A stretch of DNA of 64,000 nucleotides from Haloterrigena turkmenica DSM 5511 (GTDB lineage Archaea; Halobacteriota; Halobacteria; Halobacteriales; Natrialbaceae). Below are positions 36,748-41,569 of the stretch, one piece after another. The stretch is from NCBI RefSeq assembly GCF_000025325.1, contig NC_013743.1, positions 2,046,001 through 2,110,000 of the forward strand. The letters are read 5' to 3'. Within the stretch, counting starts at the first letter, position 1, and every line of letters begins with the position of its first letter. Made by a program: the position numbers and the translations under genes. The notes under the pieces are model-generated. The model did no database searches. It saw nothing but the letters and a program-made list of their open reading frames with translations, and had not been told where the DNA came from.

Positions 36748-37914
36748 CTAGAACGCTCGCTTGATCTTCTCGAAGAAGCCTTCGTTGACCTCGATCTCGT
36801 CGCCGCCGGCCTCGGCGAACGCCTCGAGGGCCTCGCGCTGTTCCTCGTTTAAGCTCTCGGGGGTAACGACCTGCACCTGCACGTGGAGGTCGCCGTGCCC
36901 GCGGCCGCGCAGTCGGGGCATCCCCTCGCCCTCGAGACGGAAGGTCTCGCCGCTCTGGGTTCCCTTCGGAATGTCGAGTTCGACGGCGCCGGAAAGCGTC
37001 GGGATTTCGACGGTGTCGCCGAAGGTGGCCTGCGGGAACGAGATGGGGAGCCGGTACTGGAGGTCGTCGCCCTCGCGTTCGAACTCCTCGTGGTCCCGAA
37101 CCGAGACGTCGATCAGGAGGTCGCCGTGCCGGCCGCCTTCGGGACTCGGCGCGCCCTCGCGCTCCATCCGAAGCGTCTGGCCCTCCTGAATACCGGCGGG
37201 GACTTCGACGGTCAACTGGGCCTCGTTGCGGACGTAGCCCTCGCCCCGACACTCGTCGCAGGACTCGGAGTACAGCGTTCCGTCGCCTTCACAGCGCGGA
37301 CAGGTGGTCGTCTGCTGGACTCGGCCAAGCGGCGTCTGCTGGACCTGCGTCACCTGACCCCGGCCCTGACACTCCGGGCAGGTCTGGGAGTCCGCCTCCG
37401 GCGGATGGCCCTCGCCCTCACAGACGTCGCACTCCTCGGGTCGCTCGACGGTGAACTGCTTTTGAACGCCCTCGTAGGCCTCCTCTAAGTCGATCTCGAG
37501 TTCGGTTCGCAGGTCCCGACCCTTGCGCGGTCGCCGGCGGCCGCGCCCGCCGCCACCGCCGCCGAAGACCTGCTCGAAGATGTCGCCGAGACCGCCGCCG
37601 CCCATGCCGCCACCGCCGCCCATCCCGCCGAACGGGCCGCCGCCCATCCCGCCGGCACCGCCCTCGCTGGCGTCGAAGCCGTGTTTCTCGGCCTGCTCGT
37701 AGCGGTCGTGGCCCATGCGGTCGTACGCGCTGCGCTTTTCCTCGTCGGTGAGGACCTTCTTCGCCTTCTGGATCTTCTTGAATTTCTCCTCGGCGTCGGG
37801 GTCGTCGCTCACGTCCGGATGATATTCGGTGGCCTTCTGCCGGTAGGCCTGTTTGATCTCCTCGGCGGACGCGTCCTGGTCCACACCGAGTACGTCGTAG
37901 AAGTCCTCGCTCAT
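36748..37914 (-). CDS. dnaJ: chaperone DnaJ
   Basis: 388 aa from ATG 37914 (MSEDFYDVLGVDQDASAEEIK). J domain with HPD in ATEYHPDVSDDPDAEEKFKKIQ; Gly/Phe-poor but Gly/Met-rich linker (MGGGGGMGGGGLGDIFEQVFGG); four CxxCxGxG zinc repeats (CDVCEGEG, CPECQGRG, CPRCEGDG, CDECRGEG); C-terminal substrate-binding domain. Full-length class A Hsp40, the co-chaperone of DnaK at 39659. In the Hsp70 cluster an inserted halocin-like island separates it from dnaK. Confidence 0.97.
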   Translation of the reverse strand: MSEDFYDVLGVDQDASAEEIKQAYRQKATEYHPDVSDDPDAEEKFKKIQKAKKVLTDEEKRSAYDRMGHDRYEQAEKHGFDASEGGAGGMGGGPFGGMGGGGGMGGGGLGDIFEQVFGGGGGGRGRRRPRKGRDLRTELEIDLEEAYEGVQKQFTVERPEECDVCEGEGHPPEADSQTCPECQGRGQVTQVQQTPLGRVQQTTTCPRCEGDGTLYSESCDECRGEGYVRNEAQLTVEVPAGIQEGQTLRMEREGAPSPEGGRHGDLLIDVSVRDHEEFEREGDDLQYRLPISFPQATFGDTVEIPTLSGAVELDIPKGTQSGETFRLEGEGMPRLRGRGHGDLHVQVQVVTPESLNEEQREALEAFAEAGGDEIEVNEGFFEKIKRAF

Positions 37915-38281
37915 TCGTTGTACACCGATTGTCGATTGAGACACTTGAAACGAACGTTCCCGGAGTATGCGGTCTAGTTCGATCTCTCGGCTCACGATCG
38001 ACCGTAACAGTACTGGGTTCCACGCATTCCCGTTTCAACTGAGAAAACCGTTTTCTCGTACGATAACGCATGATCGATTTGACCTTGCAAAGTGTGGGAA
38101 ATAGCTAATAGTTCGGTAAATCATTAGTCGATTGGACTGCGACCGTATCATGTCGCCAGTTGCTATCAAAACACATATCGGTAGTTCTAACAGCCTGACT
38201 ACCACAAATTGGAGAGCAAAAGAGCACTGGAAATGGGTGGTACGGACATTGCCATATTATATTTTCGAACGAGGTAATAGC
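37915..38281. other. AT-rich spacer between dnaJ and the halocin-like island
   Basis: 367 bp. From about 38050 the base composition drops sharply to AT-rich (TAATAGTTCGGTAAATCATTAG, CATATTATATTTTCG), marking the left border of the foreign segment. The dnaJ promoter should lie within 37915-37985. A short plus-strand frame at 38132-38341 has no coding character. No other gene recognised. Confidence 0.5.
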
Positions 38282-38494
38282 TTATCCTTCGATCCAGACA
38301 TACCATATGACTGCTGCGAAGACACTTGCAAATATAATTGAAGTCCAAATTGCTTCTGCTATAGATAATCCTCTAGAGATATTGGCTATGAATGACACGC
38401 AAAAAGTTATAGAAAAATATAATATTGCCTTTCTCAACCTATTAGAATAAAACTCGCCGTTTGATTTCTGATCAGACATCAATGGTGAATTCAT
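38282..38494 (-). CDS. small two-helix membrane protein downstream of halocin-like gene
   Basis: 70 aa from ATG 38494; ATG 38479 (MSDQKSNGEFYSNRL) is an alternative. A basic N-terminal region is followed by two membrane helices (AILYFSITFCVSFIANIS and AIWTSIIFASVFAAVIWYVWI). It starts 72 bp after the halocin-like stop on the same strand, shares the AT-rich composition, and is likely co-transcribed. Its position suggests immunity or export support, but that is inference; no family recognised. Its residues are less acidic than core haloarchaeal proteins. Confidence 0.65.
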   Translation of the reverse strand: MNSPLMSDQKSNGEFYSNRLRKAILYFSITFCVSFIANISRGLSIAEAIWTSIIFASVFAAVIWYVWIEG

Positions 38495-38565
38495 AGTGGG
38501 TCCGTTAACGACTCCTACACGACGCAGCGCAATTCGGCTTACGGTTGATGAACCGCAAGAGTCGG

Positions 38566-39360
38566 TTAGCAGAACCCACCTTCTTCACAAAGGTTTTCGT
38601 GCTTAAGGCTATCGCTGACAGTACAGTCATTCGGGACTGCAACATGAGCGCAAATCATCGTCGCAGCAACCCCACAGCCGATCCCGAGCAGAGGCGTACC
38701 GACGAAACTGACTCCTGCACAGATAAGTCCCGTATTGGCGCTGCATCCAACCCTACACAATTCCTTCATTATCGTTGTACATTGGCCACAGCTAACACCA
38801 TTCCGACCCGAAGGAGTCACAAGTCCATCACGATCACTAATGGAAGTGATAATCCTACCATTTTCCAATGTGGCTTCAGTAGTTGTCTTCTTTATCTCTC
38901 CATTATGTAGTCGAAATTCAGTTATTTCGTATGTCTCTTCGGCTATGGGCTCCGACATCAACGCTTTAGAGTATATGATAGATTCATCTTCAAGAGTGAA
39001 TGTAAGGTCAGCATCGACCGATGAATCAGAGAACTCTAATGGAAACGAAACTATCGTTCCTGTTCTATCTTCTGCAGTTTTACTATCCGTTATTTCATGG
39101 ACGGATGGATCGTCTAGAATATCGATTCGACCATGATTGTCGAAGTACTCATCATAGGCCCTATATTCGTTTGATTGGCGAACTCTTGACACGATATTTG
39201 TTTTCTTATATTCATTTATTTCTTCTATCTCACCGGTTATATCACCTACGGAACCAGCACCTATACCACTGAATGTGCCTATAGCAACTGAACTTGCTGC
39301 AGTGCCTTTCAAAACCTTCCGACGAGTGAGTGGGGAGCTCTTTTCGCTATCTTCTGGCAT
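38566..39360 (-). CDS. halocin C8-like antimicrobial precursor (Tat signal, ten-cysteine C-terminus)
   Basis: 264 aa. Residues 11-36 form a twin-arginine signal (LTRRKVLKGTAASSVAIG). Residues 40-187 contain no cysteine and are hydrophilic, beta-rich. All ten cysteines lie in the last 74 residues at 191, 194, 202, 206, 214, 229, 237, 246, 258 and 264, around a hydrophobic core (CAGVSFVGTPLLGIGC). This spacing closely follows that of the halocin C8 peptide as I recall it, whose precursor also carries an N-terminal immunity domain. Expected: Tat export, cleavage near residue 188, release of an about 76-residue peptide. AT-rich composition marks horizontal acquisition. Confidence 0.85.
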   Translation of the reverse strand: MPEDSEKSSPLTRRKVLKGTAASSVAIGTFSGIGAGSVGDITGEIEEINEYKKTNIVSRVRQSNEYRAYDEYFDNHGRIDILDDPSVHEITDSKTAEDRTGTIVSFPLEFSDSSVDADLTFTLEDESIIYSKALMSEPIAEETYEITEFRLHNGEIKKTTTEATLENGRIITSISDRDGLVTPSGRNGVSCGQCTTIMKELCRVGCSANTGLICAGVSFVGTPLLGIGCGVAATMICAHVAVPNDCTVSDSLKHENLCEEGGFC

Positions 39361-39384: not shown

Positions 39385-39392
39385 TATTTAAA
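39385..39392 (-). promoter_or_regulatory. TATA box of the halocin-like gene
   Basis: On the minus strand TTTAAATA is centred about 28 nt upstream of the ATG at 39360. It is a near-consensus haloarchaeal TATA box, implying a short or absent leader. Confidence 0.7.
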
Positions 39393-39462: not shown

Positions 39463-39660
39463 TCGAAACTCGATGGTCCCGTTCACAACTCGGGTGCTCC
39501 TTCGTCATATCTTGCACCGCTCTTCCATCGGGCCGAAGAAAATGACTTCTCGCGTTATCGTCGTCTTCGTCAAATTCGAAAACTCACTGCGTTCGTTTTC
39601 GAAACTACGATGGACTCGTTGCACTCGTCCATCGAGCCCAAGAAGACGACTCCTCGCGTT
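39463..39660. repeat. degenerate tandem duplication next to the dnaK stop codon
   Basis: Two diverged copies. Copy one (39463-39570) reads GTTTCGAAACTCGATGG...TTCCATCGGGCCGAAGAAAATGACTTCTCGCG; copy two (39592-39685) reads GTTTTCGAAACTACGATGG...GTCCATCGAGCCCAAGAAGACGACTCCTCGCG and runs into the last dnaK codons. Estimated identity is about three quarters by eye with small gaps. A palindrome-like TTCGAAAACTCACTGCG lies between them. Confidence 0.6.
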
Positions 39661-41569
39661 ACTCGTCGTCGTCTTCTTGGACGTCTTCGAAGTCGGCGTC
39701 GACGAACTCCTCGTCCTCGCCGCCGGCAGCCGCGCCGGCGTCGGGACCGGGGTTCGGACCGCCGCCCATGCTGGCGCCCGCTGCGCCACCGGCCGCACCA
39801 CCAGCGCCGCCGGCGCCCGCGGCGCCGGCCTCCTGGTAGATCTGCTTGCCGATTTCCTGGAGTTCCTTGCTCAGGTCCTCGGTCGCGGCCTCGATGTCCT
39901 CGGCGTCGGCGTCGCCGTCGTCGATCGTCTCCTCGAGATCCTCGATCGCGGCCTCGATGTCGGCGCGGAGATCGTCGTCGACCTCCTCGTCGTTCTCCTC
40001 GAGGAGGGTCTCGGCGCGCTGGATCGTCGCCTCGGCGGTGTTGCGAGCCTCGATACGCTCGCGCTTCTGCTTGTCTTCCTCGGCGTGTTTCTCGGCCTCC
40101 TCCTGCATCTTCTCGATCTCGGAGTCGGAGAGCCCGGCGCCGCCCTCGATGGTGATCTCCTCGCTCTCGCCGGAGCCCTTGTCCTCGGCGGAGACGTTGA
40201 CGATCCCGTTCTCGTCGATGGAGAACGTGACCTCGATCTGGGGCGTTCCGGCGGGGGCCGGCGGGATGCCGGTCAGGTGGAACTCGCCGAGCAGTTCGTT
40301 CTTCTCGGCCAGTTCGCGCTCACCCTGGAAGACCCGGACCTGCACGGAGGTCTGGTTGTCCGCCGCCGTGGTGAAGATCTTCGACTCCTCGGTCGGGATC
40401 GTCGTGTTCTTCTCGATGAGGCGCTCGAAGAGACCGCCCTTGACCTCGATACCGAGCGAGAGGGGCGTGACGTCGAGCAGGACGATGTCGTCGACCTCGC
40501 CGCCGAGGACGCCGCCCTGAATCGCCGCGCCCAGCGCGACGGCCTCGTCGGGGTTGACGTTCTTCTGGGGCTCCTTGCCCGTCAGTTCCTCGACCTTCTC
40601 CTCGACCTGGGGCATTCGCGTAGAGCCGCCGACGAGGAGGACTTCGTCGATGTCGTCCTTCTCGTAGCCCGCGTCCTCGAGGGCCTGCTCGGTCGGTTCG
40701 ACGGTGCGGTCGATGAGGTCGCTGGTCAGCGACTCGAACTTGGCGCGAGTGAGCGATTCCTCGAGGTGGATCGGGCCGTCGTCGGTCGCCGTGATGAACG
40801 GCAGGTTGATCTCGGTCTCCTTGCGCGAGGAGAGTTCGATCTTGGCCTCCTCGGCGGCGTCCTTGAGCCGCTGGAGAGCCTGTCGGTCGTCACGGAGGTC
40901 GATGCCGTGTTCCTCCTCGAACTCCTCGGCGAGCCAGTCGATGATGGCCTCGTCCCAGTCGTCGCCGCCGAGGTCGTTGTCACCGTTGGTCGCGACGACC
41001 TCGTAGACGCCGCCGCCGAGATCGAGAATAGAAACGTCGAACGTGCCGCCACCGAGGTCGTAGACGAGAACGGTCTGGTCGGAATCGTCGTCGAGGCCGT
41101 AGGCCATCGAGGCGGCCGTCGGCTCGTTGATGATGCGCTCGACCTCGAAGCCGGCGATCTCGCCGGCGTCCTTGGTCGCCTGGCGCTGTCGGTCCGAGAA
41201 GTACGCCGGGACCGTGATGACGGCCTTCTCGATCTCGTCGCCCAGATAGTCCTCGGCGTCGCGCTTGATCTTCTGGAGGATCATCGCCGAGATCTGTTCG
41301 GGCGTGTACTCCTCGTCCTCGATCTCGACGGTGTAGTCCTCTTCGCCGATGTGGCGCTTGATCGACTGAATCGTCTTCTCGGGGTTCTGAACGGCCTGGT
41401 TCTTCGCCGGCTTCCCGACGAGTCGCTCGTCGTCGGTAAAGGCGACGACGGAGGGCGTCGTCCGTTCGCCTTCGGAGTTGACGATGATCTCCGGATCGCC
41501 GCCTTCCATCACCGCGAAGGCGCTGTTCGTCGTCCCGAGGTCGATTCCGAGAATTTTGTTGCTCGCCAT
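39659..41569 (-). CDS. dnaK: molecular chaperone DnaK (Hsp70)
   Basis: 636 aa. Starts [24 protein letters not shown]. All Hsp70 signatures occur: [39 protein letters not shown], and the substrate-domain stretch [33 protein letters not shown]. The C-terminal 40 residues are Gly/Ala-rich then [20 protein letters not shown]-driven folding in the cytoplasm with GrpE and DnaJ. It is the middle gene of the grpE-dnaK-dnaJ cluster and has its own AT-rich promoter region at 41580-41640. Confidence 0.98.

What the first reader, a model, noticed from the sequence alone, without database searches (positions are those of the whole stretch)
38566..39360. A halocin C8-like toxin precursor in an AT-rich island
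Ten cysteines are confined to the last 74 of 264 residues, with spacings x2, x7, x3, x7, x14, x7, x8, x11, x5. As I recall halocin C8, its mature peptide has ten cysteines with almost the same spacing and a 76-residue length. A Tat signal leads, a cysteine-free middle domain follows (the immunity domain in halocin C8 precursors), and the mature part has a hydrophobic core. The loop between cysteines 5 and 6 and that between 8 and 9 differ, so this may be a new variant with different target or immunity specificity.
Basis: partly seen in the sequence, partly recalled or inferred. Interest (0 to 1): 0.87.

Follow-up and report, generated by a model that had tools for sequence, protein, structure and literature searches.

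The report
Halocin C8-like toxin with membrane partner
A salt-loving archaeon carries, between two heat-shock genes, a gene for a secreted ten-cysteine antimicrobial peptide of the known halocin C8 family, followed by a tiny membrane-protein gene that two related species keep after losing the toxin, which suggests it protects cells from the toxin.

Summary
The C-terminus matches the curated halocin C8 family over its whole length (TIGR04449, 6.4e-11). The middle domain is a divergent relative of the halocin C8 immunity domain. The family is known and not rare: 43 of 391 haloarchaeal genomes. The toxin is therefore a new divergent member, shared by two Natrinema-group genomes at the same dnaK-dnaJ site.

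It is conserved. In two further genomes it survives at the same site while the toxin gene is reduced to its last ~40 nt. Small 2-4-helix membrane ORFs follow 21 of 43 family clusters, against 2% of control genes, but not canonical halocin C8, described as single-gene production plus immunity. I infer a toxin-immunity pair. No activity was tested, and a 2019 survey that may already report such partners could not be read.

The parts
38566..39360 (-). Halocin C8-like precursor, 264 aa (Tat signal, HalI-like middle domain, ten-cysteine toxin)
39241..39360 (-). Tat-type signal region, residues 1-40 (TRRKVLK plus hydrophobic stretch)
   Evidence: Read directly; RR invariant in 16 relatives; Tat profile hits below cutoff
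38803..39231 (-). Cysteine-free middle domain, residues 44-186, HalI-like: helix-loop-helix then beta meander
   Evidence: Leave-one-out profile 33.0 bits against at most 14.8 in shuffles; model, same layout as a HalC8-type precursor
38569..38790 (-). Ten-cysteine mature toxin domain, residues 191-264 (exact cleavage site unknown)
   Evidence: TIGR04449 full-length match; invariant cysteines; dN/dS about 0.05
39385..39392 (-). Probable TATA box TTTAAATA, 24 nt before the ATG, predicting a leaderless transcript
   Evidence: Read directly; TATAAATA at about the same place in two relatives
38282..38494 (-). Small two-helix membrane protein, 70 aa (conserved start at 38479 gives 65 aa): candidate immunity protein
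   Evidence: Conserved next to the toxin in two relatives; present without the toxin in two more genomes; dN/dS about 0.17-0.25 in most comparisons
38480..38580 (-). Spacer between the two genes with a hairpin (z -2.9); no terminator-like site found
39659..41569 (-). dnaK, upstream flank of the island
   Evidence: Read from the translation; same neighbour in L048, L052, L098, L099
36748..37914 (-). dnaJ, downstream flank of the island
   Evidence: Read from the translation; same neighbour in relatives

Best explanation
This is a two-gene antimicrobial unit of the halocin C8 family. The precursor is folded in the cell, exported by the Tat pathway and cleaved outside, releasing a disulfide-rich peptide of about 74-76 residues that harms related haloarchaea, probably at the membrane or cell envelope. 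The HalI-like middle domain masks the peptide until cleavage and may contribute to immunity. The small two-helix membrane protein downstream, probably made from the same transcript, is the dedicated cell-bound immunity protein. Shown here: family membership, domain layout, the gene pair and its conservation, and loss of the toxin gene with retention of the small gene in two genomes. Inferred: export, cleavage, killing, target, co-transcription and the immunity role.
For: Full-length TIGR04449 match over cutoff. HalI-like middle domain. Strong purifying selection on the mature part, dN/dS 0.05. Same dnaK-toxin-small gene-dnaJ order in two relatives. In G004 and G092 the small gene stands alone at that site, preceded by a relic of the last ~36-44 nt of the toxin gene, stop codon included; in G004 the match continues from the relic through the spacer and small gene (329 nt, 8e-26). 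A small 2-4-helix membrane ORF within 130 nt downstream follows 21 of 43 clusters, against 6 of 275 control genes. A four-helix partner kind is found in 5 of 391 genomes, each time next to a family member; one of those toxins is truncated while its partner is intact.
Against: No activity, export or immunity was tested. Half the clusters, including the canonical halocin C8 group and the next-nearest relative L067, have no such partner by my criteria. Membership of the two-helix partners in one family is only weakly supported. Between the two orphan copies dN/dS is 0.53 on few sites, so they may be drifting rather than kept. The small protein has no match above cutoff in Pfam or NCBIfam and nothing convincing in PHROGs.
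Confidence: 0.68

Rival explanations
1. Single-gene halocin, as described for halocin C8: the HalI-like middle domain alone gives immunity, and the small membrane protein does something else (release, anchoring of a protease, or helping export).
For: The middle domain is homologous to HalI and has the same helix-loop-helix then beta layout. HalC8-type loci have no partner. Secondary literature describes HalI as the immunity part of ProC8.
Against: An export or processing helper should be lost along with the toxin, yet the small gene outlives the toxin in two genomes, and a different four-helix partner outlives a truncated toxin in a third.
Confidence: 0.22
2. The cysteine domain is not a killer but a secreted signalling or structural peptide, with the membrane protein as its receptor or partner.
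For: Only a few family members have been characterised as antimicrobials; the mature part is strongly conserved within this subtype.
Against: Patchy distribution, several types per genome and loss with partner retention fit antagonism better; the founding member halocin C8 is antimicrobial.
Confidence: 0.07
3. A decaying or silent gene in an AT-rich insertion.
For: Low GC island; five congeners lack the gene.
Against: The ORF is intact, all ten cysteines are kept, dN/dS is 0.19 overall and 0.05 in the mature part, and a TATA box is kept at nearly fixed spacing.
Confidence: 0.03

Closest known systems
Halocin C8 (ProC8/HalI/HalC8; Sun et al. 2005, cited in PMC11509114)
   Same: Tat signal, HalI-like domain and C-terminal ten-cysteine peptide of about 74-76 aa; seven of the nine cysteine spacings agree
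   Different: About 24% identity overall; loop 5-6 is 14 not 13 and loop 8-9 is 11 not 8; it has a downstream membrane-protein gene that the HalC8-type loci lack
NCBIfam TIGR04449, halocin C8-like domain
   Same: Full-length match above the curated cutoff
   Different: Belongs to a narrow subtype with a distinctive cysteine spacing, found in 3 of 125 genomes of its taxonomic family
Membrane immunity proteins of bacterial two-peptide bacteriocins (topic of PMC6957408)
   Same: Small transmembrane protein encoded next to the toxin; works-like comparison only
   Different: No sequence relation tested or claimed; archaeal, different toxin fold

Membership tests
Halocin C8-like domain (TIGR04449) | C-terminal domain matches the curated profile above cutoff | tested here: met
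   43.1 bits against 24, residues 191-264, profile 1-69 of 69
Halocin C8-like domain (TIGR04449) | Ten cysteines in the mature peptide with family spacing | tested here: met
   All ten invariant among 16 members; spacing varies in loops 5-6 and 8-9 across the family
Halocin C8 precursor architecture | Tat signal at the N-terminus | tested here: inconclusive
   Twin arginine plus hydrophobic stretch, RR invariant in relatives, but the Tat profiles score below cutoff
Halocin C8 precursor architecture | HalI-like immunity domain before the toxin | tested here: met
   Leave-one-out family profile 33.0 bits against null maximum 14.8; same predicted layout. A direct comparison of two shallow three-sequence profiles failed
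Halocin C8 single-gene system | Production and immunity from one gene, no separate partner | tested here: not met
   A conserved membrane-protein gene follows and is retained without the toxin elsewhere; this is inference from gene content, not a functional test
Halocin C8 | Secreted, processed and antimicrobial | not testable with these tools
   Needs culture work
Halocin C8 | Disulfide-bonded compact fold | not testable with these tools
   The model shows four helices at pLDDT about 70-84; bonds themselves not determined

The most novel reading that the evidence does not exclude
In about half of the halocin C8 family the real self-protection comes from separate, interchangeable small membrane proteins (two- and four-helix types), and the HalI-like domain is mainly a maturation domain. 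The dnaK-dnaJ site of Haloterrigena and Natrinema then records a toxin-immunity arms race, with immune species that have dropped the toxin.
Probability: 0.4. Interest if true: 0.68.

Novelty: new variant of a known kind. Interest (0 to 1): 0.5.

Why it matters
Halocin C8 is described as a system in which one gene gives both toxin and immunity. The orphan-partner loci at the same genomic site offer a natural experiment: do species that lost the toxin but kept the small gene resist it? That makes the question of how haloarchaea protect themselves from their own halocins directly testable, and adds a distinct, uncharacterised peptide.

Tried and rejected
Solved-structure sequence search: no hit. 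Foldseek against PDB and viral models: nothing below E 0.001. Viral contigs and plasmids: no relative. Direct profile comparison of the middle domain with HalI, three sequences each, failed (probability 0.1); replaced by the deeper leave-one-out test. One common family for all two-helix partners: individual tests are mostly marginal, combined p about 1e-9 against segment-wise shuffles, which may not fully model membrane composition; I do not rely on it. Recent transfer into this genome: not clearly supported, toxin dS 0.60 against dnaJ 0.50 and dnaK 0.29; vertical inheritance with losses is at least as likely. Makarova et al. 2019 mBio and Mei et al. 2008 could not be read.

Full report
OBSERVATION. 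The ORF at 38566-39360 on the minus strand encodes 264 residues from an ATG. The local GC is 43.6% in 38001-39000 against about 66% around it. The island lies between dnaK (39659-41569) and dnaJ (36748-37914), both read from their translations.

FAMILY. NCBIfam TIGR04449, halocin C8-like domain, matches residues 191-264 over the whole profile at 43.1 bits (cutoff 24). Pfam has no such family and gives only a weak Tat hit. Across 391 Halobacteria genomes, 43 carry the domain in 26 of 86 genera, often more than once. I extracted 59 of the hits with flanks and read their cysteine spacings. L036 has the mature sequence that I recall as halocin C8 itself, and its 283-residue frame agrees with the published length of ProC8; its spacing is 2,7,3,7,13,7,8,8,5. 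The window's spacing is shared only by two loci, G034 and G091; a third, G276, differs only in loop 5-6. G034 corresponds to Natrinema pallidum DSM 3751 and G276 to Halocatena marina.

ARCHITECTURE. An AlphaFold2 model on a 16-sequence alignment (mean pLDDT 71.7, pTM 0.73) shows a disordered signal region, a helix-loop-helix followed by a beta meander (residues 45-174, pLDDT mostly 80-96) and a C-terminal four-helix domain (191-260, about 70-84). A halocin C8-type precursor (L037) modelled the same way gives the same order: strand, two helices at 54-79, strands, then C-terminal helices (lower confidence). A profile of middle domains from other clusters, leaving out the window's own cluster and L067, scores the window's middle domain at 33.0 bits, against at most 14.8 for 500 shuffles; HalI scores 80 in the same kind of test. 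So the middle domain is a divergent relative of HalI. The title of Mei et al. [quoted passage not shown] the model has one there. No solved or viral structure matches.

PROMOTER. TTTAAATA ends 24 nt before the ATG, and TATAAATA sits at nearly the same position in the two relatives, with TATTTGT-ATG conserved. This predicts a leaderless transcript, by established knowledge of haloarchaeal promoters.

THE PARTNER GENE. Seventy-two nt after the toxin's stop is an ORF for a 70-residue protein (38282-38494), with the conserved start at 38479, containing two hydrophobic helices. In G034 and G091 the toxin precursor is 80% identical and the small protein 57% identical, in the same dnaK-toxin-small-dnaJ order. 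Among 125 genomes of the family, strong toxin matches occur in 3 and small-protein matches in 5. The two extra, G004 and G092, have it at the same dnaK-dnaJ site with no toxin gene. The DNA just upstream of it there aligns best, in all four comparisons, with exactly the last 36-44 nt of the toxin gene ending at its stop codon (two of the four beat all 500 shuffles, one has p 0.03, one 0.28). In G004 the match runs on through spacer and small gene (329 nt, 68%, E 8e-26). The simplest reading is deletion of the toxin gene with retention of the small gene, the pattern expected of an immunity gene. Selection on the small gene is purifying in most pairs (dN/dS 0.17-0.25), but 0.53 between the two orphans, so constraint there may be relaxed.

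GENERALITY. I grouped 60 members into 43 clusters and asked whether a 45-145 residue ORF with at least two hydrophobic helices starts within 130 nt downstream on the same strand: 21 of 43 do, against 6 of 275 other long ORFs in the same loci. The HalC8-type cluster does not. The partners come in two-helix (about 52-84 aa) and four-helix (about 120-136 aa) kinds. One four-helix kind is found in 5 of 391 genomes, every time beside a family member. In one of these (G191) the toxin frame lacks its first half, including the signal, and has lost a conserved cysteine, while the partner is intact.

SITE. In five congeners and some Natrinema-group genomes the pair is absent; the dnaK-dnaJ gap there is mostly 72-418 nt, and in a few it holds different insertions of up to 4.2 kb. 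The island is therefore a variable site. Toxin dS (0.60) is close to that of dnaJ (0.50), so old inheritance with repeated loss is plausible.

MECHANISM. Tat export of a folded precursor, extracellular cleavage (the protease for HalC8 is unidentified), action on neighbours' envelope or membrane, and protection of the producer by the small membrane protein, possibly helped by the HalI-like domain. Membership, layout, gene pairing and toxin loss are shown; export, cleavage, killing and protection are inferred.

VERDICT. The membrane partner and its orphan copies raise the interest. I could not exclude that a 2019 survey already described such partners.

Noticed in passing
L072 6509-7453 (G000 contig C3, 413,648 bp): The same genome has a second family member with eight cysteines in the domain (spacing 7,11,3,11,3,11,7) and a 152-aa two-helix protein 168 nt downstream.
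   Followed up: partly
L087 3100-5217: A 706-residue Tat-type protein ends in a halocin C8-like domain at the family cutoff: a much longer precursor than usual.
   Followed up: no
L076 4611-5013 (reverse-complemented locus coordinates): Halocin C8-like gene without its first half and with an altered cysteine pattern, followed by an intact four-helix membrane ORF.
   Followed up: partly
L045: A halocin C8-type gene in G092 matches the HalC8-type precursor only from residue 98 on, so its signal and part of HalI are missing; the same genome also holds the orphan small gene.
   Followed up: partly
L115 907-5116, L114 3344-5314 (reverse), L113 4290-5572: The dnaK-dnaJ gap of other Natrialbaceae holds other insertions, one with a 247-aa Tat-signal protein: a variable accessory-gene site.
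   Followed up: partly
window 39520-39557 and 39624-39661: Imperfect 38-nt direct repeat (84%), the second copy including the dnaK stop codon, possibly a trace of the island's insertion.
   Followed up: no
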